Virus record (IMG/VR): IMGVR_UViG_3300042381_000431
Span: 1-30,180 of that record
Origin: a virus
DNA: 30,180 bases
Strand: one strand, 5' to 3'
Numbering within the stretch: position 1 is the first letter of the stretch; every line of letters begins with the position of its first letter. The notes beneath the pieces are model-generated. The model worked only from the letters and a program-made list of their open reading frames with translations. It did no database searches and had not been told where the DNA came from. A program made the translations under genes and the position numbers. Shown one piece after another: positions 15,951 to 29,775 of this stretch.

Positions 15951-17953
15951 TGGTCAAAAAGTGCTGCCTCACGTTTACGCCGGTTCACCAAGCCTTTCAA
16001 CTCCTCACCTCCTGCTTTGGTGTAAAGCAGCAGTCGGCGTTTTACTTCCTTCATGTCTCCGTTGCTTGTCTCAAGCAAGTAGCCGCCACGCCCGGTGTTG
16101 AAGTCAAAAGAAATCAAAGCGTTGCGTTGGTTGTCTGACAAAGTCACCCCAGCCTTTTGTGCCGCGCCATCAATTCTTCCTGCGTGCATGGACAATTCCT
16201 CACGCAATCTAGCGTCTGCCTCTTCTTTACTCAGCACTTCGCCTTCAGACTTTGCCCGTGTTCCGTAACCTACGGAAGTCTGCTTGTAGTCTCCGTAAGC
16301 TTCTGGGATAAACGACTCCATTTCTTTAACGGCATCAACTAAGGTCTCGTCCAATGCGCCTGACGGACCACTTGGCCCAACATCTCCCTGTGCTCCCAAG
16401 TTTGGAGGGGTTGCGCTCACTGGCTTGTAGTCTCGCATCATGTTCTCAAACGCTCCCATCCTAGTGCCTTCTGGAATAAGCGTCCTCAGTTGCAACTTCA
16501 CAGCAGGAAGACTGTTTGCCTCGTTCGGGTTGTCTCGGAACCAGTCATTCATTTTCATCTCAATGACCGTCTGTGCATTCAGCGCATTCTGTTTCGCCAC
16601 AGGATCGTCCTTGAAGACCATCTCACTGGTAGGCTTTCCATCAGAACCAAGCTTGGGAACTTTAGTCCTCCACGGCACGGCTCCGGTTTCGGAGTCAAAC
16701 AGAACGTCCAGTGACTTGCTGACGTTTTGCTGAATCTCAGGACGAACCGATCCCTTTGGCGGCAGTGCGCCATACTTCCTGTAGAGTTCACCAGTAATCT
16801 CGCCTGCACTGCTTTGCGTGACCCGTGTCCCAATGTCCTTGACCAGTTCAAAATATTTGGTGCGGTCTGGGTCTTGACTTGGGTTGTAGTCTTTGACCTT
16901 CTGCCGCATTTCTACTGCGTTTCTTACTCCATTTGTCTCACGGTCCAACGCCTCTGCCTGTGCGTTGCGGTTTTTGAGCATGTCTTTGGCTTTTTGCCGC
17001 AGGGCAGGCGTAAAGTGAACGCTCTCGTATGCATCAATGTGCTCGTCGGTGCTGTAAACGTTGCCAACAATGCCATTGGCTACGTCGTCAATCACCTCAG
17101 AAGCCCGTCCATTAGACGTTTGCTTGATTGCGGATCGCAGACGCTCAAGATTGGATGGGCTATGTGTTCCGAAAGCGCCGCTGTCCAAGGCTTTAATGGT
17201 TGCCTCTTCCCCGCCTTCCGTTGCTGCCTTGATTGCAGTGTCCTCGGCGGCATCAAAAGCATCTGCCTTGGCTTTCTTGATGTTGTATTCTGCCCGATCC
17301 TTCATCTTGCCCTCAATGGTCGCCAGCTTGGACTCACTCCATCGTCCAGTGTCACGCATGTTTTGCCCAATGCCTAGAGCCGTTGCCATGTCGCCCTTAT
17401 CAAATGCTCGGATCAGCGCACCTTCCATTTTCTCGCTCTCAAGCTCAAACACTTTGCTTGCTGAGGATATTTGAGTGGCAGTCGCTTGCCGCTTAGACCA
17501 CCGCTCCAGCCGAGTACTAATTGCCATCCTTGCGTCAGGAGATAAGTCTTGCTTCAGCAATGACTCGTTCAATGACTTCATGCGTCCTTCCGCAATTCCG
17601 ATCCACTTTGTGGTGTCTGGCTCAACTGCAATGTCTGCGGCAATGGCTTGCTCTTCCAGTTCCATTGCCTCGGCTGCATCCAGTTCCTTTAAGTGATTGA
17701 TGGATTTGTTCCGTTCAATCAAGAGGTTGGTAATTGCCGCGCCTTCACCGGCAATAGCCTGCCCAATGGCACCCACTTGCTGCTCGGCAACGATAAACCC
17801 TCGCGGATCGACTTGGGCAACGGCACCTGCTGCACGAATGGATGCGGAGTTGTCGGTGCTTAGACCTTCAATCCCGGCAGATTTCTGGAATCCCCCGAGG
17901 TTGGTCGTGGTCTTGGGGAGTTGCTCGTAGGGGATGGGGATGCCTCTTGCCAT
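15947..17953 (-). CDS. Internal virion protein (gp15 position) with C-terminal GH24 lysozyme
   Basis: Residues 1-500 of this 668-aa protein are mostly charged alpha-helix (for example ELESEKMEGALIRAFDKGDM), as expected for a T7 gp15-like ejection protein. A Gly/Pro linker (GDVGPSGPSG, 523-532) leads to a T4-type lysozyme domain at about 535-668. Its active-site string has Glu546 and Asp555 at the nine-residue spacing of T4 lysozyme Glu11/Asp20, then SVGYGT, and it closes with NRRKREAALF. The third catalytic-site residue appears as Ser560 instead of the usual Thr. Role: local peptidoglycan cutting during DNA entry. The start lies one base after the gp14-like stop and the end overlaps the giant gene by four bases. 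In T7 the wall-cutting domain is at the N-terminus of gp16, so here that activity sits on a different protein. Confidence 0.88.
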   Translation of the reverse strand: MARGIPIPYEQLPKTTTNLGGFQKSAGIEGLSTDNSASIRAAGAVAQVDPRGFIVAEQQVGAIGQAIAGEGAAITNLLIERNKSINHLKELDAAEAMELEEQAIAADIAVEPDTTKWIGIAEGRMKSLNESLLKQDLSPDARMAISTRLERWSKRQATATQISSASKVFELESEKMEGALIRAFDKGDMATALGIGQNMRDTGRWSESKLATIEGKMKDRAEYNIKKAKADAFDAAEDTAIKAATEGGEEATIKALDSGAFGTHSPSNLERLRSAIKQTSNGRASEVIDDVANGIVGNVYSTDEHIDAYESVHFTPALRQKAKDMLKNRNAQAEALDRETNGVRNAVEMRQKVKDYNPSQDPDRTKYFELVKDIGTRVTQSSAGEITGELYRKYGALPPKGSVRPEIQQNVSKSLDVLFDSETGAVPWRTKVPKLGSDGKPTSEMVFKDDPVAKQNALNAQTVIEMKMNDWFRDNPNEANSLPAVKLQLRTLIPEGTRMGAFENMMRDYKPVSATPPNLGAQGDVGPSGPSGALDETLVDAVKEMESFIPEAYGDYKQTSVGYGTRAKSEGEVLSKEEADARLREELSMHAGRIDGAAQKAGVTLSDNQRNALISFDFNTGRGGYLLETSNGDMKEVKRRLLLYTKAGGEELKGLVNRRKREAALFDQ

Positions 17954-17954
17954 A

Positions 17955-18755
17955 TCAAATGATGGTGTCGCTTATGTTGCGAATTGGAGTCGAATCTTTG
18001 TAGCCCTTGTAGGGAGTGCTGGTGGTCCGGCGGTAGGAATAAGCATCCCGCGCCATGCCGCCAATGCCAGAGATCAGGTTGCCAGTTGCGGCTGAGCGCA
18101 TGCCAGCAGACTGCGCTCGTTCGCCAAAGAGGTTCAAGCGTGCCTGACTTGCTCCCATGGCAGCGTTGTTCCGTGCCGCAGCAGCAGCAAGCAAGCTCAT
18201 GCCAACGTCGATGCCTGCGGTCTCGCCCCGGATCGTTTCCAGATCAGCGGAACGGAAGCCCTGACGGCGGGAAATCTCGTCGGCGTAGCGCATCTCCTCT
18301 TCGGCCAAGGCTTGTGTCTCGGCACCTTTGACCAGCAGTTCCAGTGGCGATCCAGTTGTGTCCACGATGCCTCGGGATGCGGTAGCTGCACGCTGTTGGG
18401 CCAGCATTCTGGCAAAGTCTTCCCTGCTCCTGCGGATGTTATTCTGCGCGTTGCCGCTCTCCCGCTCTGTCTGTGCCCTGATCCCTGCTGCGTTGGCGTA
18501 GGCGGCTTGCTGTGCCTTACCCTGCTTGATTGCCTCAAGCTGCGCCTGTGCTGCCTGCATGCTGCCCTGTTGCTGCGCTCCCTGTGTGGCGGCTTGGGCG
18601 TTCATCAACGCAAACTGAGCGTTTGTTGCAGCAGCGTTTTGGCTGGCTTGATAAGATACCCCCGCACCAACGCCGGTAGCGACCACCGATCCCACTTTAA
18701 AAATAGTGCCCCCAATTTTTGTAATTGCAGCAACTGTTGCTGGATTAAGTGCCAT
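17955..18755 (-). CDS. Internal virion protein, gp14-like, 266 aa
   Basis: A Gly/Val/Ala-rich hydrophobic N-terminus (about residues 5-38, TKIGGTIFKVGSVVATGV) could insert into the host envelope, as proposed for T7 gp14. It is followed by a long Ala/Gln-rich helical region (AQAATQGAQQQGSMQAAQAQ) and the motif TASRGIVDTTGSPLELL near residues 124-140, a pattern I associate with phage internal virion proteins of this class. The C-terminus is basic and Tyr-rich. It shares a TAATG overlap with the gp13-like gene and is followed directly by the lysozyme-bearing ejection protein, matching T7 order 13-14-15-16. The family call rests on order, length and composition, not on alignment. Confidence 0.8.
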   Translation of the reverse strand: MALNPATVAAITKIGGTIFKVGSVVATGVGAGVSYQASQNAAATNAQFALMNAQAATQGAQQQGSMQAAQAQLEAIKQGKAQQAAYANAAGIRAQTERESGNAQNNIRRSREDFARMLAQQRAATASRGIVDTTGSPLELLVKGAETQALAEEEMRYADEISRRQGFRSADLETIRGETAGIDVGMSLLAAAAARNNAAMGASQARLNLFGERAQSAGMRSAATGNLISGIGGMARDAYSYRRTTSTPYKGYKDSTPIRNISDTII

Positions 18756-19186
18756 TAATTTGGATTGTAAAAGATTGAGGAGACGTACTGGGTCTCGCCG
18801 GACTCAAAGCCCATCTGCCGCAGGATGCGTGCAATGGACGGCAATGTGGTTGCGCGGAAGACTCTAAACTCTGCCGGTGGCTCAACTGACGTCCCGGCCA
18901 ACCTAATGCAGGCTTGGACTGCCACCTTAAATGCCGCAGTTGATTGCGCCAAGGACAGGCTCGGACGAGAGATTGCGCCCTCCAACATGGCAACGCCAAC
19001 GCCATAACACTCGTAGCACCACAGCACCACCATTGGGCCGGACTCGTCGCAGACAATCACCCCAAGTGGGGGAAGGATCGCCACTGGAAACGTGGAGGAC
19101 TCGCGCCAGTTCCACCACTCGGCAACCATGACCGCGTCATCTGGCGTATAAGGCCGGACGGTCAGGTGAGGAAGATCATCGTGCAT
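18755..19186 (-). CDS. gp13-like small GNAT-type protein, 143 aa
   Basis: The product has a layout like T7 gp13 (138 aa), which precedes gp14 and is needed for assembly of the internal core. It starts with a beta strand and helix (LTVRPYTPDDAVMVAEWW), carries a hydrophobic middle (GPMVVLWCYECYGVGVAML) and ends in a GNAT-like strand-helix pattern (FRVFRATTLPSIARILRQMG followed by Phe). I see no clear acetyl-CoA pyrophosphate loop, so enzyme activity is doubtful. It overlaps the nozzle gene by 11 bases and shares TAATG with the gp14-like gene. The position between the nozzle and gp14 genes supports the gp13-equivalent call. Confidence 0.72.
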   Translation of the reverse strand: MHDDLPHLTVRPYTPDDAVMVAEWWNWRESSTFPVAILPPLGVIVCDESGPMVVLWCYECYGVGVAMLEGAISRPSLSLAQSTAAFKVAVQACIRLAGTSVEPPAEFRVFRATTLPSIARILRQMGFESGETQYVSSIFYNPN

Positions 19187-21479
19187 AGATACCAGTATGG
19201 GCTACCACCATCAAAATATTCAAGGGCTGAGCACTGTCGGTGCGAATTTCAAAGTTTGTGCCGTCAAGGAACCCGGCTTGGTGGTAAATGGGTTCTGTCA
19301 GTCCAGTGAACAACGGCACTGCCGCGTCCATCGTTGGATTTGGGTTGCGGAACAGGAAGGGCCGGAAAGGGCCAACGTCGCTGTCACCTGTGGACATGGC
19401 ACCAGATAGGTGCAGCCTGACTCGAAGTTCTGGGGTGCGGTGCTGCAATCCCTGCGCGGTGCCGTCCTGTAGTTGGAGATCGGACAAGAAAGGCTGGATG
19501 CGGGACAAGAACGGAAGTCCCACAATCACATGGTCGCCACCACCTGGGAAGTCGTCGTAGTCCAACGTGATTTGCCCGCCAATCACTTTGCGTGGTGCCT
19601 GCTCTGCACCGTCCAAGATGACAGAGACCACCGCTCCTTCTAAGTGCCCAAGCCCACTGACCACAAGTGTTGGAAGGACCATCTCTTGCCGGATCGCAGA
19701 GTCCAAATACGTCAAAGTCACCCGGTAATCTGCACCGTCGTCCACGGTCGTCCAGTGGTCCGGGGGGAACCGCTCAATAAACCGCTTGGTCACGCCGTCA
19801 ATCTCGCGCAGGACAGAGAACCAGACCTCGTCAGCATCCTTGTCACCATAGATTGTACAGACTGACTCCACGAATCCACTTGTGGGATGTTGTGCCCATG
19901 CGACCACCTCAGACTCCCGCCGGTAGGTGCAGGACAGGAGCATGCCGTCGTTGGTCACTGCCCAGATGATGCTGTCTGGGTTCTGTGCATAACCGAATTG
20001 TTTGAACCCGGACTTGGTCATGTGCTCGGAAAGCTGCGTCAGGTCCGGTGCCTTGTACCCTTGCTCGTCGAAGGCGAAGACGTACTCACGCAGTGCCCTG
20101 CGCCCCCGCTGCACGAACAGGACGACGCTGCCCACCAGTTGTGCCTGTAGGTCAGCACTACCAAACTTGGTTTTCCGCTTGGAGTACGGTGGGTTCGTTG
20201 GCGAGATCACGCCGTCACCGCTGTCCAGCAGCCACTCGTCCCCCTCGGTGCCTACGATCAACCCTTCCTGAGAAGCCAGCCAGACAATCGGGTTGGCTTC
20301 CTGTGCTGCTACCTGCACAGCATAGGACGAGTCCTCAAAGTCCAGAAGCTGGAAATTGTTAAAGTCGTTGATGGCACTGCCCCAAATCTTCTGCGGTTCT
20401 GCGGCGTTGCCTGCAAACGTCAGTCGTTGCTGGTGGATTGCACAAGCCCGAGGATAACCGCGCCGGGTAGACCATGCGCCCTCTGCCCAGTCGAGCGTAG
20501 CGGTGGTGGCTTCCAGTGCCTTGATGACGGTCACGTTGGCAACAGTCGATGACGTCACGCCGGTCACCTTGACCAGACCATGGATTGATGGATCGATGGC
20601 AGCAAGTTCGGCCCGAGGATCAGGAGTGCCTGTGTGGGAACCGGCAACATACCGCATCCGCATTGCCGTCTCAACGTCTACCGTGCCATTGGCTTGGATG
20701 TTGTTATCCTTATCTGCGCCCCATGACCGCAGTGTCTGCCAAGTGCCGTCCACCTTTTGAACCTCAAGGAACAGTTCTCCGGCCCATTTCCCAAAAGTAT
20801 AAAGCTCCCACGCACCCAGCACCCGCAGTGCCGTTGTAGTAGCCGTTGCCGTCAGCGGAAGCTGTTCTGTAGCCACTGCCCTGCGGTGGGTGATCTGGTA
20901 GTAGCTCCCCACGTTCTCGGTGGTGAAGTGGGCAACGGAGCTTGTCAAAGTGCCGCTGCCGGTCATGACGGAGCACCGCATCGTGCCGGTCGTGTCGTTC
21001 AGGTCACGCATTGCTGGCCAATTCCAAGCGAAGTCAGCAAGCGTCCAACTGGTGTCGGATACCCGGCGCAGTTCCTGTGGGTGGAAGCTTGGATGAGTGA
21101 AAAAGATCAGGTTGTTTACCTGCACCATCTGGATGCCAAATAGCTGCGCCTCGGTCCATGGGGCGGCAAGCTCAAGCGGCACGCCACCAGACAGCACCAA
21201 GGCACCGTCCTTCCAGAAGCGCAGGTATCCATCACCAAGCTCCAACACGAACCGGGATGTGGTGCTGAAGTTGAACGGCAGCAACCGGCACTGCTTCGTG
21301 TTGTATTTGGCTTCCCCTAGATACAGCATTCCCGGACGACGACGCACCCCGCCCAGCGTCCGAGGAAGGAAGTTCCGGCATACCCGGCAGGCTTTCTTCA
21401 GCGACTCAAGGTCCACGCGACCCATCAGGTCCGGCGTAAGTTCCCCGGCGTTGAATGCATTGGTTAGTATCCGTGCCAT
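19176..21479 (-). CDS. Tail tubular protein B (nozzle), gp12-like, 767 aa
   Basis: The N-terminus carries the signature of podovirus nozzle proteins: NAFNAGELTPDLMGRVDLES, then CRVCRNFLPRTLGGVRRRPG and LLPFNFSTTSRFVLELGDGY (roughly residues 8-85). The rest is beta-rich, as expected for the nozzle, and the length is close to T7 gp12 (794 aa). The central part contains phrases common in this family (IWGSAINDFNNF, VQRGRRALREYVFAFDEQGY). It assembles below the gp11 ring and forms the tip of the short tail through which DNA exits. Its ATG overlaps the gp11-like stop by one base (TAATG). Confidence 0.93.
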   Translation of the reverse strand: MARILTNAFNAGELTPDLMGRVDLESLKKACRVCRNFLPRTLGGVRRRPGMLYLGEAKYNTKQCRLLPFNFSTTSRFVLELGDGYLRFWKDGALVLSGGVPLELAAPWTEAQLFGIQMVQVNNLIFFTHPSFHPQELRRVSDTSWTLADFAWNWPAMRDLNDTTGTMRCSVMTGSGTLTSSVAHFTTENVGSYYQITHRRAVATEQLPLTATATTTALRVLGAWELYTFGKWAGELFLEVQKVDGTWQTLRSWGADKDNNIQANGTVDVETAMRMRYVAGSHTGTPDPRAELAAIDPSIHGLVKVTGVTSSTVANVTVIKALEATTATLDWAEGAWSTRRGYPRACAIHQQRLTFAGNAAEPQKIWGSAINDFNNFQLLDFEDSSYAVQVAAQEANPIVWLASQEGLIVGTEGDEWLLDSGDGVISPTNPPYSKRKTKFGSADLQAQLVGSVVLFVQRGRRALREYVFAFDEQGYKAPDLTQLSEHMTKSGFKQFGYAQNPDSIIWAVTNDGMLLSCTYRRESEVVAWAQHPTSGFVESVCTIYGDKDADEVWFSVLREIDGVTKRFIERFPPDHWTTVDDGADYRVTLTYLDSAIRQEMVLPTLVVSGLGHLEGAVVSVILDGAEQAPRKVIGGQITLDYDDFPGGGDHVIVGLPFLSRIQPFLSDLQLQDGTAQGLQHRTPELRVRLHLSGAMSTGDSDVGPFRPFLFRNPNPTMDAAVPLFTGLTEPIYHQAGFLDGTNFEIRTDSAQPLNILMVVAHTGIYAR

Positions 21480-22111
21480 TATGGGTAGATTTCAGTGTTG
21501 ACGGGATCAGGGTAGTTGGGGAACCCAGCACCGTATCTGGCAGAGGTGTAGGAGTCCATGCGCTCGTGGTACGGGATGACTCTTGTCATGGTCTCAGCGG
21601 CGTTGGTCTCCTCGGCCCTTGCCCTTGCCGGTGCAGCCAGTGCGTCAAGCATCTGGATGGCAGAGGTCTGGAGAGTAAAGGAAGGAGCAATCGCCTTGGC
21701 AAGCTCGTAGCCAAAGAACTCACAAAAGTTGGCATCCCACAGGCTGACCTGCTCCACTCGCCGCAGGTATCGCAGCTTGCATGTGGTCAGGTTGGTCAGC
21801 ACCTCGGCGCCTTCGACCTCAAACGGCACGCTACCCACGCCGGGAGGACATCCGTTGATCTCCAGCACCCTGAGACAGTCGCTGGGCAACGGATAAGCGT
21901 AGGTGTATTCAAACGCCGGAGCGGTCGCAGATGCCGTCAGTTGCATCCGGCGCACCGCGAAATTCCATGGGTACGCACGCATGAGGTTGTCCCGCACTGC
22001 GTCAAACATCCGGCGCACATGCTCCGCCGTCACGGTGTTCTCTGACAGGTCTGCGATCCGTGCCATTCCAATATGCCCGAGGGCAAGGTTTGCGAGTGTC
22101 GTTTCAGTCAT
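21479..22111 (-). CDS. Tail tubular protein A (adaptor), gp11-like, 210 aa
   Basis: The pattern TLANLALGHIGMARIADLSE followed by VRRMFDAVRDNLMRAYPWNF (about residues 5-55) is typical of podovirus gp11-like adaptors, which form a ring between the portal and the nozzle. Length is close to T7 gp11 (196 aa). I chose the ATG at 22111 (MTETTLAN) over an in-frame ATG at 22126, because the latter lies inside the U-tract of the terminator hairpin at 22125-22159. The C-terminus ends DPVNTEIYP and overlaps the nozzle start by one base. Because a terminator lies just upstream, expression depends on read-through or a promoter that I cannot identify. Confidence 0.9.
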   Translation of the reverse strand: MTETTLANLALGHIGMARIADLSENTVTAEHVRRMFDAVRDNLMRAYPWNFAVRRMQLTASATAPAFEYTYAYPLPSDCLRVLEINGCPPGVGSVPFEVEGAEVLTNLTTCKLRYLRRVEQVSLWDANFCEFFGYELAKAIAPSFTLQTSAIQMLDALAAPARARAEETNAAETMTRVIPYHERMDSYTSARYGAGFPNYPDPVNTEIYP

Positions 22112-22124
22112 GAGCGTAAATAGC

Positions 22125-22159
22125 AAAACCCCCGACCCGGCACAAGTCCAGGCCGGGGG
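22125..22159 (-). terminator. Strong intrinsic terminator after the capsid/cement genes
   Basis: On the minus strand the 31-base palindrome from 22159 to 22129 forms a 12-bp GC-rich stem (CCCCCGGCCTGG with CCGGGTCGGGGG, two G-U pairs) around the loop ACTTGTG, followed directly by TTTTG. It lies 18 bases after the stop of the cement-like gene and 14 bases before the gp11-like ATG. T7 has its Tphi terminator in the same place, between gene 10 and gene 11. Confidence 0.92.
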
Positions 22160-22177
22160 CCAACCAATGAACCAATT

Positions 22178-22636
22178 TTAGCGCTTCTTGCGGTAAGCGA
22201 TCTCGACGTCGAACGAGGCTCCGGCGTTGGTCGTTGTGACCACCGTAAGGAAGACACGCAGGGCATCAGTCTTGCCAAGGACGGGACGAATAAGGGCGTC
22301 ATTTGCCACATACGCGACCTTTTCTGCTCCGGTGTAAGACACGGCAGTGGTCAAGTCGGCAGCAGTCCCGGCAGCGTTTACTTTTTGCAGTTTTTTGGTG
22401 ATGCTAAAAGTGCCAGTCACTTTGCGGTTAAAGCAAAGTTCTGGGATGATTTCAATGTTGTCAGCGGGAAGTTGGCTGGTAAGGACGATATTGCTGTCAG
22501 CGTCCTCAGTGCCAGTAAGGGTTACGCGGAACTTGGCGTAGCGCACTTCTTGCTCCACTGCCGCTTGATCGACGACGGTGTAGAGGGATGGTGTGCGGCG
22601 CTTTGTTTCAATATCAGAGTAGAAGGTAGAAGGCAT
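22178..22636 (-). CDS. Probable capsid cement/decoration protein, 152 aa
   Basis: This beta-rich 152-aa protein follows the major capsid gene by 42 bases. It has no signal peptide; strands such as RYAKFRVTLTG, NIVLTSQLP and ALRVFLTVVTTTNAG alternate with polar loops, and the C-terminus is basic (EIAYRKKR). In Bordetella phage BPP-1, whose virion is of the same podovirus type, the gene after the capsid gene (bbp16) encodes a small capsid-cementing protein; position, size and predicted fold agree, but I cannot align them. It shares a terminator-bounded unit with the capsid gene, as expected for a protein needed in hundreds of copies. The leader CTAGAAAAACATCATG ends like that of the capsid gene (ACATCATG). 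Confidence 0.72.
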   Translation of the reverse strand: MPSTFYSDIETKRRTPSLYTVVDQAAVEQEVRYAKFRVTLTGTEDADSNIVLTSQLPADNIEIIPELCFNRKVTGTFSITKKLQKVNAAGTAADLTTAVSYTGAEKVAYVANDALIRPVLGKTDALRVFLTVVTTTNAGASFDVEIAYRKKR

Positions 22637-22678
22637 GATGTTTTTCTAGTTAAGGGGTAGGGGTTTCATGGCTTGCGA

Positions 22679-23626
22679 TTAAGGGGACTCATCGCAGTAG
22701 ATGACCTGCACTTTTTCGTCCTTCACGCGAACGGCACCAAAAGCAGCGTAGCTCATGATCTGGAGAGCATGGCGCTTGGTGGGAAGCTTGTCGATCTCAA
22801 GTCGCTGGGAGATCGGAGAGACCTTAAAGGCGGACTTGGTGAATGCAACGCAGGTGCGGACGTCGGTGCTGGCGCTACCAGTGGTGAACAGACGGTTGCT
22901 GATGATGGTGTTAAAGCCCATCAGCTTGGTCGGCTTGCCGGTCTGGCTATCGGAGAGCCACTGACCAACGATCTTGGCCCAGATGTCGTTCGGAGCGGCA
23001 GCAACGAAAGTGACGAGGTCCAGCTTCTGGCGAGGGCTGATGGCGAGGTAAAGCTCTTCCTGCTCGACGTCCACTTCAGCGGTCTCAAAGCGTTTTACGG
23101 CTTCCAGAATCTTGTACGGGGTCAGACCAATGTTGGTGGCAGCACCAGTCAGAGCGTAGTTCACTGCAATCTCAGAGGTAGCAGGAAGGGCAATGCTGGT
23201 GTTGAACGGATCGGCACCACCAAGGCTGGCGGCAGTGGCGGCTTCGATGAACACGGAGTCCATCTTGCGGTTCAAGCCAGCCTTCATGTTCATGATGATA
23301 TCAGAATCAGGAAGGGCTTGGGTGTTGAGCCACTGGTTGTCCCATTGGTCGCGCTTGATGCCGACTTCAAACTGGCGCTGGTAGCCTTTGCGCTTACCAC
23401 CACCAACGTCGGACGGGTTGCTGTCGCCAAAGCGTTGACCAGTGGTCTCAGCAGCTTCGATGATATCAAGGTCGGTCCAAACGTATTCTTTGGAGGACCA
23501 AGCGGATTCAAGGGTGCCAGCAGAAGCGAACTTCTGATTGGCTTGTTGCAGTTCCATTTCCCATTGGGTGGAGAACTGTCGGCGGAAGTGATCGGGGATC
23601 GTGAGTGAAGCAGAATAATCGGACAT
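22679..23626 (-). CDS. Major capsid protein, 315 aa
   Basis: The protein matches the podovirus HK97-fold capsid type: N-terminal MSDYSASLTIPDHFRRQFST, the helix EMELQQANQKFASAG, FEVGIKRDQWDNQWLN near residues 86-101, and a C-terminal AFTKSAFKVSPISQRLEIDK. Length is in the normal range for T7/BPP-1-type shells without an extra domain. It follows the scaffold gene and precedes the cement-like gene. It sits downstream of a terminator (23780-23814) and a structured 5' leader, and upstream of a second terminator (22125-22159), so it probably has its own strong promoter. The start has no Shine-Dalgarno; the leader is CTCACATAACATCATG. Confidence 0.92.
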   Translation of the reverse strand: MSDYSASLTIPDHFRRQFSTQWEMELQQANQKFASAGTLESAWSSKEYVWTDLDIIEAAETTGQRFGDSNPSDVGGGKRKGYQRQFEVGIKRDQWDNQWLNTQALPDSDIIMNMKAGLNRKMDSVFIEAATAASLGGADPFNTSIALPATSEIAVNYALTGAATNIGLTPYKILEAVKRFETAEVDVEQEELYLAISPRQKLDLVTFVAAAPNDIWAKIVGQWLSDSQTGKPTKLMGFNTIISNRLFTTGSASTDVRTCVAFTKSAFKVSPISQRLEIDKLPTKRHALQIMSYAAFGAVRVKDEKVQVIYCDESP

Positions 23627-23640
23627 GATGTTATGTGAGT

Positions 23641-23760
23641 GAGAATTTCAATCTCGCTGCATCATCCGGTAGGCCGGTCTCGGGCCGTATCTGCTGCGCC
23701 GACTTGGAGAGTTAAGCCGGATGTCCGGGACTCAGTCGTGCATCACTACGGGATACCCTT
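23641..23760 (-). promoter_or_regulatory. GC-rich structured leader region upstream of the capsid gene
   Basis: This gene-free stretch separates the terminator from the capsid ATG. On the minus strand a perfect 7-bp inverted repeat (CATCCGG and CCGGATG, positions 23724-23718 and 23671-23665) encloses 46 bases that can form an inner GGCC/GGCC hairpin around CGAGACC. A shorter GTCC/GGAC repeat lies just upstream. I find no tRNA-like T-arm, no open frame longer than a few codons and no sigma-70-like promoter pair. As a leader of the most highly expressed gene it could hold a phage promoter, an mRNA-stabilising hairpin or an RNA-processing site. The function is not known. Confidence 0.45.
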
Positions 23761-23779
23761 ATTTCCAATTGCAAGACAG

Positions 23780-23814
23780 AAAAAGAGCCGCCCCGGAACT
23801 TTCCAGAGCGGCCC
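23780..23814 (-). terminator. Intrinsic terminator between scaffold and capsid genes
   Basis: On the minus strand a stem of about 13 bp runs from GGGCCGCTCTGG (23814-23803) to CCGGGGCGGCTC (23796-23785), with G-U pairs at three positions and a very short AAAGTT-type loop, followed by TTTTT. It starts 14 bases after the scaffold stop. It would stop most transcripts coming from the packaging/portal genes before they reach the capsid gene. Confidence 0.85.
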
Positions 23815-23828
23815 TGATTCGATTGACG

Positions 23829-24725
23829 TCAAGTTGGTGATGCCTGTTTCCACAGTGCAGCGACCTTTGCTCGGACTGCTGCCGAGTTGGGGTGACTAGC
23901 GTTGCGGAAGGCTTCGTACTCTGGGTTGCTCTTGTCTCCCATGATTGATTTGGCGAGTTGTTCCGGCCCGAGGTTGGCAACGGCTGCACCACTGACCAGT
24001 TTCGACTCACCGAGTTGACCGGCAAGCTGGGCGAAGGCAGCAGTCATGTCTACTCCAGCAAAGAGTGGGGACTTGGGATCAAATAGTTCCCGTGCGTTGG
24101 GTAGATTCATCGTGGTCGCCAACCGGGCAGCAAGGGACAGGTGAGTGTCCACCTTGTCGCCCCAGCGTTTTGCCATCTCGCCCCGCTCGTACTCGGCCAA
24201 TTGAGCCGCCTCCGCTTGCTGTGACGCCGTCGCACCAGTCAGCCTGTCCATGTCATACTGCACCAAGGCTTGAGCCTGCTTAGGGGTCAATCCAAGCTCG
24301 TGCGCCTTGTTGGCGAAGGCTTTGGCCGCGTCGTCGCTCCATTCAACGCCGTCAGGCAACGCGGATGGCTTGTCGAACTTGTAGCCATCAACGGTTTCTG
24401 GCACTCCGTAGAGCTTCTTGAGTTCACTCTGGTATGCCGCCTGTACTTCCGGCGCAGCATCAGCGGCAGGAATGGTCAGACCGGGCGGCTTCGCCCTGGC
24501 TGCGGTCATGTTCTCCTTGAGGCTCTTGGTGATTCCCTTGAGGTCTTTGAAGTTGGCAAGCAGGGCGCGATCCTCTTCGTAGTCGGCAGGAAGCTTGGTC
24601 TGCCACTCCGGCACGAACTGACCGTCCGGCGTGAAAATGGATTGCTGCCATGGCGCATCCACTGGTGCGGCGGCAACTGGTGCGGCTGGGGTTGTCTGTT
24701 CGACGGGTACTAGTTCTTCGGGCAT
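23829..24725 (-). CDS. Capsid assembly scaffolding protein, 298 aa
   Basis: The sequence has the usual phage scaffold layout: a Pro/Ala-rich start (MPEELVPVEQTTPAAPVAAA), the phrase LPADYEEDRALLANFKDLKG near 44-63, VPETVDGYKFDKPSALPDGV near 106-125, then a highly charged helical body (AYERG-like repeats and KRWGDKVDTHLSLAARL), and a short basic C-terminus (VRAKVAALWKQASPT) suited to binding the capsid protein. It lies between the portal and capsid genes. I chose the ATG at 24725 rather than one at 24773, because the earlier sequence translates to an unlikely MEGQVRPPNLTKT and the 24725 start has the AACCAAAACCAACACAACC leader seen before other genes here. Confidence 0.88.
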   Translation of the reverse strand: MPEELVPVEQTTPAAPVAAAPVDAPWQQSIFTPDGQFVPEWQTKLPADYEEDRALLANFKDLKGITKSLKENMTAARAKPPGLTIPAADAAPEVQAAYQSELKKLYGVPETVDGYKFDKPSALPDGVEWSDDAAKAFANKAHELGLTPKQAQALVQYDMDRLTGATASQQAEAAQLAEYERGEMAKRWGDKVDTHLSLAARLATTMNLPNARELFDPKSPLFAGVDMTAAFAQLAGQLGESKLVSGAAVANLGPEQLAKSIMGDKSNPEYEAFRNASHPNSAAVRAKVAALWKQASPT

Positions 24726-24742
24726 GGTTGTGTTGGTTTTGG

Positions 24743-24814
24743 TTAGATTAGGTGGCCGTACTTGGCCTTCCACTCGACGACGGCAGGGGTCTTAGTCCCC
24801 TCCGATAAAGTCAT
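24743..24814 (-). CDS. Possible 23-aa mini-protein or frameshift extension
   Basis: A 23-codon frame starts with ATG inside the last codons of the gene 24792-25199 and ends 17 bases before the scaffold start. The peptide ends AVVEWKAKYGHLI, which looks protein-like and resembles the WK-x-KYG motif in some small phage proteins. It is in the +1 frame relative to the gene it overlaps, so it could be an independent mini-gene, a remnant, or a C-terminal extension reached by frameshifting. No Shine-Dalgarno sequence is visible. This is a weak call. Confidence 0.25.
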   Translation of the reverse strand: MTLSEGTKTPAVVEWKAKYGHLI

Positions 24815-25199
24815 CGGTGGGCACGGAGGGATCGGTGCCCTCGTGCGTTGCCCCACTTCCGCTGGTTCGTAGTCTTGCTTTGCGGGAGGGCTTACCGGCT
24901 TCCTGTTGTATGGCCGTTTCTGGCGTGATGGTTGGTTCATGGTTAAGGATGGTTGATGCGGTGGCTTCTGCTTCGCTGTAGCGCAGGAGCAGGTTGACCA
25001 CATCGGCGCGGCCAATCTTGCGGTAGGTCTCCAAAGCATCCTTGCCCACCGGAGCAAAGTAAGGATGCGCGACGGAGCACAGCGCCTTCTTCAGGATCAC
25101 GCCGGACTGACCGGAGAACGCACTGCGGCAGGCAGCGGCGAACTCGTCCAACGGGATCGTCTGGAACAGTGCCTGCTCAAGTGGAGTTAAGGTGCCCAC
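24792..25199 (-). CDS. Small portal-adjacent protein, 135 aa, GTG start
   Basis: Residues 15-75 form a helical domain (LDEFAAACRSAFSGQSGVIL, then ETYRKIGRADVVNLLLRYSE) followed by a Ser/Thr/Asp-rich, probably disordered tail ending DDFIGGD. The segment with DALETYRKIGRADVVNLLLR recalls the small Bbp19-type proteins located between portal and scaffold genes in podoviruses, a low-confidence match from memory. It starts with GTG overlapping the portal stop (TAGTG), and no internal ATG would preserve the helical domain. The role is unknown. Confidence 0.72.
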   Translation of the reverse strand: MGTLTPLEQALFQTIPLDEFAAACRSAFSGQSGVILKKALCSVAHPYFAPVGKDALETYRKIGRADVVNLLLRYSEAEATASTILNHEPTITPETAIQQEAGKPSRKARLRTSGSGATHEGTDPSVPTDDFIGGD

Positions 25200-26833
25200 T
25201 ACGCTGCGCCTCCCATTGCTCCTGCGGCTTGCATTGCCAGTTCAGGGTTCTTGACTGCTGCCTCGGTAATAGCTTCCTGCTGCTGTGCCATTTGCTGAGC
25301 TTCTGCCCGTGCCTGCTGCATCATAGCCTTGTCCTCAAGGGATCGGAAGTACTTGGAAGGCACTCCTTTGCCGCGACCAATGTCACGCTGTGCAGCAGAC
25401 AAGTCCCAGTCGTCCAGTAGTTCTGGCTGGGCTTGAATCAGCGGGAAGAACGTCTCAATGGTGCTGGCAAACGCCTGCTCCTTTTGCGCTTCGATGGCTT
25501 GAGACATCCGGCTGATCTGGATCGTCTGAGGGTACAGCAAACGCCACTGACCGGCGGCATCCTGAATGAAGGCTTCCTGCGGCGGTTGTGGGAACCGTCC
25601 CGCTTGGAAGAGGATCATGAAGACACGCTCCAGCAGTGGATTGATCAAGTCCGTGGTCAGCAGAGTGAATGCCGGTGAAATGCGTGCCAATTGCTCTGCC
25701 TGCCGTGCCCTGACCTCGGTGGCGGTGACTTGCCGTTCAAGGTTGGCGAACTGCTCAAACAGCGGCATGTGGAAGGCCCGCTTGATGCGAGTGTCCACCC
25801 GGTTCACGAGGTCCAGTCCCACCCGGTAGTCGGAAGGATCGGCCCAGACTTGTGGGGCATCGCTCATGTCGCTGACCTGAGTAACTCCACCCGGCCCAAG
25901 GTCCACCATGCCAACGGCTCCGGTCTTGGTGATGACCCGAGGATTGACCTTCAGGTTGGCCATTGCTGCCATCAGGCTTTCAAGGTAGTTGCTCCCGCGA
26001 ATGTCAGCAATTGACAGCATCGCAGGGGAGACTCCGTAGGGCGATTCCTCGCTCCACTTGAGCCAGCGGGAGACCATCACCGGCATCGACTCAAAGCCGT
26101 CTTCCTTGACGATGGTCTTGCTGTGCTGGTGCAGATAACAAGACGCAATCGGCATGCCCATTGGCCCACCGGCAGGGTTGCGGTCCTTGCGGTCCCGAGG
26201 GTACACGGCATGGATAAACTGGTGCTTTGTGTGCCGCTTGTTGCCTTCGACGTCCTTGATGCAGACGGCAGGTGCCTGATCTCCAAACTGCTCAACCGCT
26301 TGGTTGGCAGTAAGAGTGAAGAAGCGGAAGACGCGATCCACGGTTCCTTCGTCGTTCTCGGCACAGGCAAATGTGCCAGCGTGCCAGCATCGGAAGTTGA
26401 GCGGACGATCCTTCCCGGCTTCGGCGGACAAACCAACGGTGCCAAACGCACCAAGGTCCAGATACCCGAGGTGGACAGCGTGGTAAAAGTTGCTGTTGGC
26501 TAGTGCTTTGTGTGCTCTCGCGGTGCAATCTGAAAGCCACATGTTGACTGCCTCGCTGCCGTTGACTGACTCGTTGGCTTCCCACTGGAACCAGTTTTGC
26601 TGGCTTGGGGTGACCCATGAGGTCATGCCGCTTGCCAGCGTATTGAGCGCATCGACAGCAACGTCAGACTGTAGCCTAGTGTCCTCGGTGAAACTGCTGC
26701 CCTGCTGAGTGAAGCCCAGCCTGCGGAGCGGCAATGCATGGTCAGCGCACTGCTGCCAGATGCTCTGGAAGCATGACATTTCTGCCTGCAACTGTGCAGC
26801 CTCTAGGGAGAGTTTCTCGGCTTTTGCGTCCAT
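25199..26833 (-). CDS. Portal (head-tail connector) protein, gp8-like, 544 aa
   Basis: This is a podovirus portal protein, which forms the dodecameric ring through which DNA is packaged and ejected. Visible family features are DTRLQSDVAVDALNTLASGM and MTSWVTPSQQNWFQWE near residues 51-85, SRWLKWSEESPYGVSPAML near 252-270, and LERQVTATEVRARQAEQLAR near 352-371, all typical of T7 gp8-like portals. The C-terminus is a Gln/Ala-rich helix. Length is close to T7 gp8 (536 aa). Its ATG overlaps the preceding stop by one base (TAATG) and its stop overlaps the GTG of the next gene. Confidence 0.94.
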   Translation of the reverse strand: MDAKAEKLSLEAAQLQAEMSCFQSIWQQCADHALPLRRLGFTQQGSSFTEDTRLQSDVAVDALNTLASGMTSWVTPSQQNWFQWEANESVNGSEAVNMWLSDCTARAHKALANSNFYHAVHLGYLDLGAFGTVGLSAEAGKDRPLNFRCWHAGTFACAENDEGTVDRVFRFFTLTANQAVEQFGDQAPAVCIKDVEGNKRHTKHQFIHAVYPRDRKDRNPAGGPMGMPIASCYLHQHSKTIVKEDGFESMPVMVSRWLKWSEESPYGVSPAMLSIADIRGSNYLESLMAAMANLKVNPRVITKTGAVGMVDLGPGGVTQVSDMSDAPQVWADPSDYRVGLDLVNRVDTRIKRAFHMPLFEQFANLERQVTATEVRARQAEQLARISPAFTLLTTDLINPLLERVFMILFQAGRFPQPPQEAFIQDAAGQWRLLYPQTIQISRMSQAIEAQKEQAFASTIETFFPLIQAQPELLDDWDLSAAQRDIGRGKGVPSKYFRSLEDKAMMQQARAEAQQMAQQQEAITEAAVKNPELAMQAAGAMGGAA

Positions 26834-27159
26834 TAGTAGCTAGTTGCGCCACCCAGCATGGCGGTAGGGTTGTTTGCCACCATGCCTGATGCCATGCCCT
26901 GCACTCCGCTCGGAGTCACGCTCTGATTGAACCCATACTTCCGGCGGCGACTCATCCGCATCTCACGCCCAGCGGCAGCAACGTCGGCACTGGACCGGGT
27001 CGGACTAGGAGCAGGCGCTTCGTATGTAGGCAACTGGACGGCTTCAGCCTGCTTCATCTGCTGCTGCATCATTTTCATCTGGGTGTTGAAGTTCTTCTGC
27101 GACTGCTGGTTCGCCTGCTTCTGCTGCTTGACGGCTTTGTCGTTGTTGGGTTTTTTCAT
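26833..27159 (-). CDS. gp7.3-like basic protein before the portal, 108 aa
   Basis: The product begins with a Lys/Gln/Asn/Met-rich helix (MKKPNNDKAVKQQKQANQQS, then KMMQQQMKQAEAVQ), has a Pro-rich centre (LPTYEAPAPSPT) and ends with a basic patch MRMSRRRKYGFNQS and a Gly-rich tail. T7 gp7.3 (99 aa, tail assembly) sits directly before the portal gene and has the same order: basic helix, then a basic RKK patch near a Gly-rich end. The homology is inferred from position and composition. Its first 116 bases overlap the gene 27044-27505 in another frame. Confidence 0.7.
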   Translation of the reverse strand: MKKPNNDKAVKQQKQANQQSQKNFNTQMKMMQQQMKQAEAVQLPTYEAPAPSPTRSSADVAAAGREMRMSRRRKYGFNQSVTPSGVQGMASGMVANNPTAMLGGATSY

Positions 27160-27505
27160 CGATTTTGCTGATCAGGTTGGCCAATTGATACCACTTTGGG
27201 TTACCCCTTCTCGTAAAAGCAAGCCAATCCTTGCTCGGCCAAGTGCCGGATCGAACCAATCCAACCACTCTGCGTAAGTCACCAACCATGAGCCAGATGT
27301 ACCATGCGTCGCCTGCTGTATCGATTTCCCACGGATCGTCTAATTTATCCTCGGGCCAATCGCTACGGACGGGACGGAAAAGCAGCACAAAATCATCTGA
27401 TGCAATCAAAGTGCCACCACTGGCTAAATGAGCGGTGACGTCCTCAATCCAGCTTGATCCGCCAACTGCGGCGGTCATCTCTTCCGCTTTGTCCCATGCA
27501 TTCAT
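27044..27505 (-). CDS. Hypothetical 153-aa protein between endonuclease and portal-region genes
   Basis: I do not recognise the family. The N-terminal 110 residues look globular and mixed alpha/beta (WIEDVTAHLASGGTLIASDD, DTAGDAWYIWLMVGDLRRVV, KDWLAFTRRGNPKWYQLANL); the last 40 residues are Gln/Glu/Ala-rich and probably disordered, and are encoded where the gp7.3-like gene overlaps. It has no signal peptide or membrane helix. Its ATG overlaps the endonuclease stop (ATGA at 27505-27502). The pattern DLRRVVG...LAFTRRG with an aromatic-rich core is faintly like the gp13-type GNAT proteins, but I would not call it one. Role in head assembly is inferred only from position. Confidence 0.72.
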   Translation of the reverse strand: MNAWDKAEEMTAAVGGSSWIEDVTAHLASGGTLIASDDFVLLFRPVRSDWPEDKLDDPWEIDTAGDAWYIWLMVGDLRRVVGLVRSGTWPSKDWLAFTRRGNPKWYQLANLISKIDEKTQQRQSRQAAEAGEPAVAEELQHPDENDAAADEAG

Positions 27506-28017
27506 GAAGCGCAGGCAAATTGCCCGTGATGAATGCTTGCTGCCTCTCTGTAGGCGTGTGCAGCGTCTTCAATGGCGTCAAAATCCCCAAGGAATTTGCG
27601 TTTTCCGGCAATTGTTATTTGAACTCTCCATCGGTTCCCGACTTTATATGCCCCTTTAACCCCAGAGGAGTTGTTCTTGTATGGTCCCTTATTGTAGCTA
27701 TTTTGATTGCTTGTAGCCAAGCGCAGGTTGCAAATTCGGTCGTCAGCAGAATTCCTATTGATGTGATCAATTTCATTTGGTGGCCAGTAGCCATTGGCTG
27801 CAAACCAGATAATCGCCGACCTTTGGGAGAACCGGCCATTAATGCAGATTCTCCAATAGTTTCCTACAAGCCCTCCAGCTACGTCACCTGCAAATGCCCC
27901 ACCTTTTCTATTTACCTTCCATATCACCTCACCCGTTTCCGGGTTGCAGTGAAATAGATCAATAATGGTCTGATGGCACGGATGTGCTCGGGCTTTTGCA
28001 TGGGTGGATTTCTTCAC
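27502..28017 (-). CDS. HNH homing-type endonuclease with AP2 DNA-binding domain
   Basis: This 171-aa protein has an HNH nuclease core at about residues 70-107 (PPNEIDHINRNSADDRICNL, with His85 and Asn98 as likely key residues, then RLATSNQN) followed by an AP2-type DNA-binding domain at about 116-165 (NSSGVKGAYKVGNRWRVQI, GDFDAIEDAAHAYREA). This pairing is standard for free-standing homing endonucleases in phages. It starts with GTG at 28017; no in-frame ATG precedes the nuclease core. It sits between terminase and head genes, where T7-like genomes carry no conserved gene, so it is probably a mobile insertion. Its stop nevertheless overlaps the next gene (ATGA). Confidence 0.9.
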   Translation of the reverse strand: MKKSTHAKARAHPCHQTIIDLFHCNPETGEVIWKVNRKGGAFAGDVAGGLVGNYWRICINGRFSQRSAIIWFAANGYWPPNEIDHINRNSADDRICNLRLATSNQNSYNKGPYKNNSSGVKGAYKVGNRWRVQITIAGKRKFLGDFDAIEDAAHAYREAASIHHGQFACAS

Positions 28018-28076
28018 CCTACATTTATAAGCTACCTCTATTTAGCAATGCAACAGGTATAATTCCCCATGCATGA
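28018..28076 (-). promoter_or_regulatory. AT-rich gap with a possible promoter before the endonuclease
   Basis: This 59-base gap between the large terminase stop and the endonuclease start is visibly richer in A and T than the flanking genes. On the minus strand TTGCAT is followed after 18 bases by TATAAA, a fair sigma-70-like pair just upstream of the GTG. It may be a promoter brought in with the endonuclease. The match is imperfect and the call is weak. Confidence 0.3.
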
Positions 28077-29387
28077 CTAGGCACTGTATTTCTTCACGGT
28101 TGGAGGAGCAAAGAATTGATGCCCCAGACTATTCCGGCCCACCATCCCTTGCAGCATGGCTTCCCCAATGTAGCGGAAGGCGTCTGCCGTATGGCTTGAC
28201 CAGTCATGCACCGGCTCATTGGCAATGTAGCCCTTGGCCTTGTCCTCGCGCCTGTGGTACCACTCCAGTGCGTTGATACCGGCAGCGCACTGCGGCAGTG
28301 CAAAGCGGCAGCGGGGCAGCACCTCGCGCATCCTGCTGATGCCGTGCCAGATGTTCTGAGTGCGGGGCACCACCCGGATGTTGGCCAACCCAGCGTTTTG
28401 CAATTCCTGCTTAAACGACAGGGAGTTCTTCTGGGTCGCCTCGGCATCGTGCGGCAGTAGGTGACCGGCGTAGCTGTAGCCCTTCTTGATCATGTGGGCC
28501 ACTCGTTGTGCGGTGCCAAGTTGCAGTCCGCTGTCATGATCGATGACCCTGATCTCCCCTCCGATCTCTTGAAAATACCAGACCGCAGTGTTCTCCGGTG
28601 CCCCTAAGTCCCATGCCGTCCAGACAAGCGATCCACGCTCCCAGACGACGTCCTTGGATATCCGGTTGTCGGCCCTCGCTTCGTCCAGCAGATCAGCGTA
28701 GATGGCACCAATAAGGCCGATGGAAAAGTCGCAGTAGTACTCCTGCCGGATCATCTCCTCGCGCATGCCGGAGCGGCGTTCCTCCTGCACATCGTCGGCA
28801 CTGAGTGCTCCAGTGTCCTCCACGCTGAGCCTCTCTACATGCCAGTCCGGGTTCTCCCGGTTCGTCTCCAATAAGTCATAGAACCAGTTCTTCCCTCGCG
28901 GCGTTCCGTTGAAGATGCACCACCCACCGTTCTCCCGCAGGATCGGACGGATGTAGTCCCATGCCAGTGGGTTGTGCTGGGCTGACTCGGAGAAGATCAC
29001 GCCAATGGGGTTGCCGCCAACGACGTCGAGCGTGTCGGTCCCGAGGATTTGGATCGTGCTGCCATTGACCAGCGTGATCTTCATCTGCTGCTCGTTTGTC
29101 TTCGCCACAAGCTCCGGCGGCAGGTGGTCGATCACCTTCATGCCTGAGTTGGCATCGATGTTGTCCCACATGGCTTTGCGCCCGAGGACGGCAGTGGGGA
29201 AGAAGTAGGCGTAGTTGCCCATCTTCTGCGCTGCCATGATGGCCATGATGTTGAGGAAGGTCTTGTCTTTACCCGCCCTTCGGTGCCACACGCAGATGCC
29301 CCGCTTCACGCCGTCTTGGCAGATGGCTTGCATGATGCCCCGCTGATACGGTCGAGGCTCGAACCTGTGGGGCAGGGTGACGGTCAT
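28077..29387 (-). CDS. Terminase large subunit (packaging ATPase and nuclease), 436 aa
   Basis: The protein drives DNA into the prohead and cuts the concatemer. The ATPase half shows a Walker A variant WHRRAGKDKT (34-43), Walker B with the catalytic acid in GVIFSESA (129-136, Glu134) and the coupling motif IFNGTPRGKNWFY (158-170). The nuclease half has the expected acidic residues Asp260 in WTAWDLG, Asp314 in LPHDAEATQ and Asp402 in SHTADAFRY. These are hallmarks of the terminase-like family with GVxFSE-type Walker B. Length is normal to slightly short. It overlaps the small subunit gene by four bases (ATGA). Unlike T7, the terminase genes lie upstream of the portal rather than after lysis. 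Confidence 0.95.
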   Translation of the reverse strand: MTVTLPHRFEPRPYQRGIMQAICQDGVKRGICVWHRRAGKDKTFLNIMAIMAAQKMGNYAYFFPTAVLGRKAMWDNIDANSGMKVIDHLPPELVAKTNEQQMKITLVNGSTIQILGTDTLDVVGGNPIGVIFSESAQHNPLAWDYIRPILRENGGWCIFNGTPRGKNWFYDLLETNRENPDWHVERLSVEDTGALSADDVQEERRSGMREEMIRQEYYCDFSIGLIGAIYADLLDEARADNRISKDVVWERGSLVWTAWDLGAPENTAVWYFQEIGGEIRVIDHDSGLQLGTAQRVAHMIKKGYSYAGHLLPHDAEATQKNSLSFKQELQNAGLANIRVVPRTQNIWHGISRMREVLPRCRFALPQCAAGINALEWYHRREDKAKGYIANEPVHDWSSHTADAFRYIGEAMLQGMVGRNSLGHQFFAPPTVKKYSA

Positions 29388-29740: not shown

Positions 29741-29775
29741 GCTTAGTAGTCCACGGAAACCGGGTTGCTGTCAAT

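What the first reader, a model, noticed from the sequence alone, without database searches (positions are those of the whole stretch)
22125..23814. Capsid and cement genes insulated by two terminators
Seen: strong intrinsic terminators at 23780-23814 and 22125-22159 enclose only the capsid and the small downstream gene, within an otherwise tightly overlapping late operon. Known: T7 isolates gene 10 with a strong promoter and Tphi. The downstream terminator is at exactly the T7 Tphi position. Inference: a dedicated strong promoter lies between 23627 and 23780, and gp11 and later genes rely on read-through.
Basis: partly seen in the sequence, partly recalled or inferred. Interest (0 to 1): 0.55.

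Follow-up and report, generated by a model that had tools for sequence, protein, structure and literature searches.

The report
Insulated phage capsid cassette, conserved leader
This phage keeps its capsid gene and one small neighbour gene between two strong transcription stop signals, behind a nearly unchanging leader; in many related phages the same slot holds a previously unlisted structured RNA that probably controls how much capsid protein is made.

Summary
T1 (23784-23815) and T2 (22127-22161), both on the minus strand, are the two strongest intrinsic-terminator hairpins in the whole 30 kb on either strand, and they enclose only the major capsid gene and one small gene. Both are kept in all relatives whose sequence reaches them; in a relative whose capsid is 75% identical they are kept as hairpins although the sequence differs.

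The T7 reading is only partly right. T2 is at the Tphi position, but neither this lineage nor its relatives show a T7-type RNA polymerase, and no sigma70-type promoter stands out in the window. Relatives do have good predicted promoters in that slot (13 of 52, 0.65 expected).

The bigger result lies in the slot itself. In many relatives the capsid leader is a covarying structured RNA, absent from Rfam in all tests made. Covariance model R2 hit only capsid leaders: 54 of 54 hits in 100 sources. Two hairpins carry the same internal loop and change it in concert.

The window's own leader is nearly invariant, but it is NOT a detectable member of that RNA family. Promoter, read-through and leader function there remain inference.

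The parts
23784..23815 (-). T1: intrinsic terminator hairpin after the scaffold/protease-like gene, U-rich tail to about 23776
   Evidence: conserved in place in L012 with a different sequence
23627..23783 (-). Leader between T1 and the capsid start codon; 113 of 114 bases of its 3' part (23627-23740) identical in L010, where third codon positions of the capsid gene are 72% identical
   Evidence: Its fold is not unusually stable (z -0.56 and -0.53)
23667..23687 (-). Hairpin with asymmetric loop CGG-C-CCG(AGAC)CGG-CCUA-CCG, at the place of hairpin P4 of the relatives' RNA but with a non-canonical bulge
   Evidence: by eye, shared with L012; model R3 and the descriptor do not match it
23737..23750 (-). 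Weak hairpin CG-UAG-UG(AUG)CA-CG at the place of hairpin PA of the relatives' RNA
   Evidence: by eye; the L012 counterpart is UCC-GCAG-UGUG(AACG)CACA-C-GGG
23641..23655 (-). Short hairpin just 5' of the capsid start (GAGA/UCUC)
   Evidence: by eye
22679..23626 (-). Major capsid protein, 315 aa
   Evidence: phrog_3437 E 5e-34; relatives HTVC010P and others
22178..22636 (-). Small gene, 152 aa, possible capsid cement/decoration protein
   Evidence: no family match; beta-rich AlphaFold model, weak match to a GP4 capsid chain
22127..22161 (-). T2: intrinsic terminator hairpin between the small gene and tail tubular protein A, the T7 Tphi position
23829..24773 (-). Upstream neighbour: scaffold/protease-like gene
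   Evidence: phrog_3742 and phrog_458
21479..22111 (-). Downstream neighbour: tail tubular protein A (gp11-like)
   Evidence: phrog_394 E 5e-45; start read

Best explanation
The region is an insulated capsid expression cassette of a podovirus transcribed, most likely, by the host RNA polymerase: T1, conserved leader, capsid gene, small structural gene, T2. Shown: the two terminators, their conservation, and a leader more conserved than the genes around it. Inferred: T1 cuts off most late-operon transcripts so that the capsid message starts in the leader region; T2 ends most of that message, so capsid and its partner are made in excess while tail genes depend on read-through or other transcripts; the leader sets capsid translation or mRNA stability. 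In many relatives the leader is a defined RNA (hairpin PA, P2, P3, hairpin P4, then a hairpin that often covers the ribosome-binding site). PA and P4 carry the same internal loop and change it together, which suggests that both meet the same partner (a phage protein such as the capsid protein itself, or each other). The window has its own version of this leader, not detectably the same RNA.
For: Strongest two terminators of the window; kept through divergence. Leader 113/114, T1 32/32 and T2 35/35 in L010 against 72% at capsid third codon positions. Four relatives (L004, L006, L007, L009) carry a small-gene allele only 58-59% identical, yet T2 is 97-100% identical. No phage RNA polymerase found (PF00940: 0 of 10, 0 of 11 non-T7 records, with T7 itself at 9.9e-110; PF04998: 0 of 9). 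Relatives: RNA motif in 32 of 69 leaders against 18 of 8160 background windows; in 25 of 57 later leaders with the cut-off already fixed; model R2 54 of 54 hits at capsid leaders; covariation 274 double-change cells against 83 shuffled; third bulge base of PA and P4 equal in 61 of 62 leaders; capsid ribosome-binding sites more paired than those of other genes (median unpaired 0.22 against 0.48, p 6e-8); promoters 5' of PA in 13 of 52, 0.65 expected.
Against: The window leader does not match descriptor or models and is not unusually stable as RNA (z about -0.5). No promoter stands out in the window, and no short leader motif is repeated elsewhere in it or in 24 kb of a close relative beyond what control words give. 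None of the 18 genes listed shows a clear Shine-Dalgarno site by eye, so covering of that site cannot apply in the window. T1-like hairpins are rare in the wider family (8 of 67, 2.9 expected). Many relatives carry the RNA inside an operon with no predicted promoter. No transcript data exist here.
Confidence: 0.6

Rival explanations
1. Plain T7-like arrangement: a dedicated promoter in the leader drives capsid and small gene up to T2; the leader is only promoter DNA plus a passive 5' UTR, and DNA-level function explains its conservation.
For: T2 at the Tphi position; promoters in the same slot in 13 of 52 relatives; the window leader is not unusually stable as RNA.
Against: No promoter recognised in the window. 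In relatives the RNA structure itself covaries and occurs without a predicted promoter (by eye in Pelagibacter phages, L074, L079, L081). Near-identity extends over more than 110 bases, longer than a promoter needs.
Confidence: 0.28
2. RNA antiterminator like HK022 put: the leader transcript binds RNA polymerase and lets it pass T2 and later terminators.
For: The relatives' RNA has two stem-loops, each with an asymmetric loop, and T2-like hairpins lie downstream. put is about 70 nt with two stem-loops (passages of PMC9378689).
Against: The RNA sits directly 5' of the capsid gene and R3 found no other copy in the records searched; it is coupled to covered ribosome-binding sites; HK022 25000-34000 gives no match to R3 or the descriptor, though put's exact place in that stretch was not checked. 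An antiterminator just before a terminator that should limit the message would be self-defeating.
Confidence: 0.1
3. Leaky terminators only: one long late transcript, with T1 and T2 trimming it to set stoichiometry, no own promoter; the leader protects a processed 5' end.
For: No promoter found in the window; relatives with the RNA inside operons.
Against: A -27.5 kcal/mol terminator just before the most needed gene would lower capsid messages unless a promoter follows; relatives place promoters there.
Confidence: 0.22
4. Self-cleaving or processing element in the leader.
For: A conserved leader at a likely message 5' end.
Against: No Rfam ribozyme match in the window or 39 relatives' loci; conserved bases are split between two similar loops rather than forming one core.
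Confidence: 0.06

Closest known systems
T7 gene 10 unit (phi10 promoter, gene 10, Tphi; NC_001604)
   Same: Terminator between the capsid unit and tail tubular A; capsid set apart from the rest of the late genes.
   Different: No T7 RNA polymerase found in this lineage; an extra strong terminator 5' of the capsid gene; one more gene inside the unit; a long conserved leader; no promoter recognised.
HTVC010P-type Pelagibacter phages and allied podoviruses (Vibrio, Alteromonas ZP6, Manatee Spring phages)
   Same: Capsid family and gene order. In the Pelagibacter phages L016, L017, L086-L089 and L091 the capsid leader carries the two-loop RNA.
   Different: The window's leader is not detectably that RNA; the Pelagibacter loci show no T1-like hairpin at the cut-off used.
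HK022 put RNA
   Same: Two stem-loops near the 5' end of a phage message.
   Different: put lies downstream of early promoters and binds RNA polymerase (passages); this RNA is tied to the capsid gene; no sequence or model match in the HK022 stretch searched.
Autogenous mRNA leaders such as the B. subtilis rplJL leader (PMC4538822, search listing and abstract start only)
   Same: A leader structure controlling its own operon.
   Different: No binding partner known here; two copies of one loop in opposite strand order.

Membership tests
T7-type insulated capsid unit | Terminator between capsid gene and tail tubular A | tested here: met
   T2 22127-22161; T7 layout
T7-type insulated capsid unit | Dedicated promoter directly 5' of the capsid gene | tested here: inconclusive
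   none stands out in the window; predicted in 13 of 52 relatives
T7-type insulated capsid unit | Phage-encoded single-subunit RNA polymerase reading that promoter | tested here: not met
   PF00940 0 of 10 and 0 of 11 non-T7 records, T7 control positive; the window record is a fragment, but 38-44 kb contigs of close relatives were included
Two-loop capsid-leader RNA of the relatives (named here) | Hairpins PA and P4, each with bulge R-N-A plus an A.C or G.U pair, in opposite strand order | tested here: not met
   window and L012 fail; L012 has a PA-like hairpin only
Two-loop capsid-leader RNA of the relatives (named here) | Match to covariance model R3 | tested here: not met
   no match at the leader in window, L010 or L012, also with filters off for window and L012
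Two-loop capsid-leader RNA of the relatives (named here) | Position directly 5' of the major capsid gene | tested here: met
   relatives
HK022 put antiterminator | Binding to the RNA polymerase zinc-binding domain and terminator read-through | not testable with these tools
   needs transcription assays
Any Rfam 15 family | Score above the family's gathering cut-off | tested here: not met
   window 0 matches; 19 loci only a tRNA in L048; 20 loci 0

The most novel reading that the evidence does not exclude
The capsid mRNA leaders of this podovirus superfamily, the abundant Pelagibacter phages included, are one new class of cis-regulatory RNA. Two copies of one internal loop, in opposite strand order and a nearly fixed distance apart, are read by a single phage-encoded partner, most simply the capsid protein or a dimer of it, which thereby limits its own synthesis. 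The window lineage carries a diverged version matched to its own partner and to a host that starts translation without Shine-Dalgarno sites.
Probability: 0.3. Interest if true: 0.82.

Novelty: new variant of a known kind. Interest (0 to 1): 0.6.

Why it matters
Capsid protein must be made in large excess over tail parts. T7 solves this with its own polymerase, promoter and terminator; these phages show no such polymerase, so they need another way. The insulated cassette and, in relatives, a capsid-linked RNA give a concrete, testable answer for a very common group of environmental phages, including HTVC010P-type phages of SAR11. The RNA is not in Rfam in the tests made here, its two loops change in concert, and it can be tested with simple reporters.

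Tried and rejected
Anti-start pairing: CGGACAU in the window leader complements the first seven bases of the capsid gene, but L012 has no counterpart (by eye), so it was dropped.

A closing helix P1 around P2 and P3 in the relatives: its strands are GGCC-like and so self-complementary by construction, and by eye it is absent from the second leader type; dropped.

Repeated promoter motif: 14-base words of the window leader are not repeated in the window or in 24 kb of a close relative beyond what random words show.

N4-type virion RNA polymerase in the 3343-aa protein: no such PDB match (only an unrelated match at E 0.059). Multi-subunit polymerase domain PF04998: 0 of 9.

put-like antiterminator: no match in HK022 25000-34000; the exact put coordinates were not established.

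Portal-based extra loci as a second check: of 15 loci, 5 had a capsid gene and 0 of 5 passed the two-loop score; four (one close group) have a P4-like hairpin only and L124 has a PA hairpin only, by eye. This is against a universal motif.

First promoter test over 260 nt: 9 of 45 leaders scored at least 9, and over all leaders there was no excess against random windows of the same loci (mean control fraction 0.53). Only the test anchored at PA shows the excess, and the PA positions of about 20 of those 52 were set by eye, window and L012 among them.

Choices that could flatter the counts: the descriptor was shaped on the 69 leaders; background windows come from overlapping loci; the later set is one capsid clade picked with A5, whose five members belong to the first set; 78 of its 80 loci were given to the script (L192 and L215 left out) and 57 kept after dropping short or repeated leaders. 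R2 was searched in 100 sources that hold none of its 12 training loci but do hold near copies of a few; R3 was trained on 52 matches, so most hits are training genomes. R2 itself was built after both leader sets had been read.

Papers: library searches gave no description of such a capsid leader in their listings; only passages of PMC9378689 and PMC4802629 were read. That is no proof that it is not in print.

Full report
OBSERVATION. On the minus strand, the hairpins at 23784-23815 (T1) and 22127-22161 (T2) each have 14 pairs and a U-rich tail. The count of terminator-like sites in 12000-30180 is what chance gives (17 found, 18.9 expected), but in strength these two stand apart: -28.3 (T2) and -27.5 kcal/mol (T1), the best of 38 candidates on both strands of the window; the third, at + coordinate 85, is -22.3. 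Neither was equalled by any of 200 shuffles. They enclose only the major capsid gene (22679-23626, phrog_3437) and a 152-aa gene (22178-22636).

CONSERVATION. One search gave 12 relatives. In the 11 close ones T2 is 34-35 of 35 identical; T1 is 31-32 of 32 in the 10 that reach it; the leader bases held are 97-100% identical. In L010 the 3' leader is 113 of 114 and the T1-to-start stretch 153 of 157, while capsid third codon positions are 72% identical. In L004, L006, L007 and L009 the small gene is a 58-59% identical allele, yet T2 is 97-100% identical: the small gene seems to be exchanged between fixed flanks. In L012 (capsid 75% aa) the leader is 45% and T1 44% identical, but both terminators persist as strong hairpins (-23.6 and -27.2).

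POLYMERASE AND PROMOTER. T7-type RNA polymerase (PF00940) was not found in the window or nine other records, nor in 11 non-T7 records, where T7 itself scores 9.9e-110. The 3343-aa giant protein has no PDB match to a virion polymerase. So host polymerase is the likely reader (inference). The window shows no sigma70-type promoter in the slot (best score 6.5, reached by 28% of random stretches). In relatives, 13 of 52 leaders have a promoter score of at least 9.5 within 58 nt 5' of hairpin PA, 0.65 expected; for 12 of the 13 the spacer is 17 and for one 16, and the -10 box ends 8-17 nt 5' of PA. ZP6 has a perfect TTGACA-17-TATAAT. An earlier, unanchored test over 260 nt showed no overall excess.

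THE SLOT IN RELATIVES. Reading capsid leaders from viral contigs and phage records showed a shared plan: hairpin PA with a bulge on its 5' strand, P2 with a GGAAAG-like loop, P3, hairpin P4 with the same internal loop on its 3' strand, then a hairpin near the start codon. The loop is S-[R N A][R']-T / T'-[Y]-S'. With a fixed descriptor, 32 of 69 distinct leaders score at least 38, against 18 of 8160 background windows of 230 nt; the PA-P4 gap is mostly 40-54 nt or 6-21 nt. The cut-off was then applied to 57 later leaders: 25 score at least 38, 29 at least 34. A second small check was negative: 0 of 5.

CONCERTED LOOPS. Among 62 leaders scoring at least 38 (55 different capsids), the third bulge base of PA and P4 is A/A in 50, G/G in 11, A/G in 1 and G/A in 0 (Fisher 2e-11). 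On the capsid tree the G/G rows lie in four separate places, among them L050 beside L040, L041 and L044, and L211 beside L015 and L193; the tree tool gave no formal count of origins because one group was too small. Within a module the third base and Y are A.C 93, G.U 23, A-U 8, G-C 0, as for an A.C/G.U wobble pair.

COVARIANCE MODELS. R1 (8 short forms; 9 pairs with double changes, 19 cells against 6.8 shuffled) finds L211 at E 6e-4 and L056 at 0.034, both at the capsid leader; its third and last listed match, L079 6072-6114 at E 0.94, is not at a leader. R2 (12 long forms) was run on 100 sources outside its training set, 556 kb on both strands: 54 matches with E up to 1, 47 below 0.1, 41 below 0.01, all on the + strand. 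Fifty-three end within 120 nt of the assigned capsid start; the 54th (L070) overlaps an uncertain start and ends before the capsid match. Forty-six of the 100 sources had no match, among them window, L010, L012, L014, L036-L038, L042 and L043. On 52 aligned matches, 20 of 22 pairs have double changes, 274 cells against 83 shuffled (that alignment is fitted to the model, so it leans towards it; the MAFFT alignments do not). R3 found 12 more matches with E up to 2 in 51 sources, all at capsid leaders by their coordinates, none in window, L010, L012, T7 or the HK022 stretch. In 16 long records, 11 have exactly one match, each at the capsid gene, though most of these are training genomes. Rfam 15: nothing in the window, only a tRNA in 19 loci, nothing in 20 more.

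TRANSLATION. For 52 capsid genes with a Shine-Dalgarno site the site is unpaired with median probability 0.22, against 0.48 for 106 other ORFs of the same loci (p 6e-8); it is lower than the locus mean in 22 of 29 loci. The window's genes show no clear Shine-Dalgarno sites by eye, so this cannot carry over directly.

TERMINATORS IN RELATIVES. T2-like hairpins (<= -18) lie within 800 nt of the capsid stop in 19 of 42 loci (4.2 expected), many at 530-630 nt, after one small gene. T1-like hairpins occur in 8 of 67 (2.9 expected), some of which (L076 at -62, L070 at -109) may be leader hairpins themselves.

THE WINDOW'S OWN LEADER. It is nearly invariant, but its fold is not unusually stable (z about -0.5), unlike L012's (z -3.1). 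By eye window and L012 share CGG-C-CCG...CGG-CCUA-CCG at the P4 place and C-G-YAG-UG at the PA place; both fail the descriptor and R3, also with filters off. I therefore do not file it as a member; a diverged version is possible but unproven.

LITERATURE NOTE. In passages of PMC4802629, a promoter predicted for the structural gene ORF8 of Vibrio phage OVC8 reads AGAGTCCGGA-AACGGGTA-GCTC, which by eye is a P4 hairpin GAG-U-CCG(GAAA)CGG-GUAG-CUC; the 'promoter' listed for ORF9 looks like a hairpin with a T tail right after ORF8.

VERDICT. Terminator observation confirmed; T7 analogy apt for T2, unproven for the promoter, not met for the polymerase. The most likely reading is an insulated capsid cassette with a control leader; the wider RNA family is well supported, its function is not.

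Noticed in passing
22178-22636 and L004, L006, L007, L009: The small gene after the capsid exists as two alleles 58-59% identical in DNA between near-identical flanks, as if swapped by recombination at the conserved leader/terminator borders.
   Followed up: partly
5919-15950: Giant 3343-aa protein with a sub-threshold ART-PolyVal match (E 3.9e-6, below the Pfam cut-off); no PHROG match.
   Followed up: partly
27502-28017: HNH endonuclease gene (phrog_99, E 1e-58) between the terminase and portal genes.
   Followed up: no
L071 and L055 capsid leaders: Two tandem copies of the PA-type hairpin 5' of the capsid gene, one of them at the usual distance.
   Followed up: no
L048 3707-3778: A tRNA gene (56 bits) directly 5' of the capsid leader in one phage; the near-identical capsid leader of L047 is preceded by other sequence.
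   Followed up: no
window, 18 genes: No clear Shine-Dalgarno sites by eye; starts often follow A/C-rich stretches such as AACATCATG, suggesting a host with other initiation habits.
   Followed up: no
PMC4802629, Vibrio phage OVC8, promoters 2 and 3: Predicted promoters in print appear to be the P4 leader hairpin and a terminator hairpin.
   Followed up: partly
L014, L038, L042 upstream of the capsid leader: An inverted repeat overlaps the predicted promoter, so that upstream transcripts would form a hairpin which promoter-born transcripts would lack.
   Followed up: no
window + coordinate 85, minus strand: Third strongest terminator-like hairpin of the window (-22.3), near the end of the record.
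   Followed up: no
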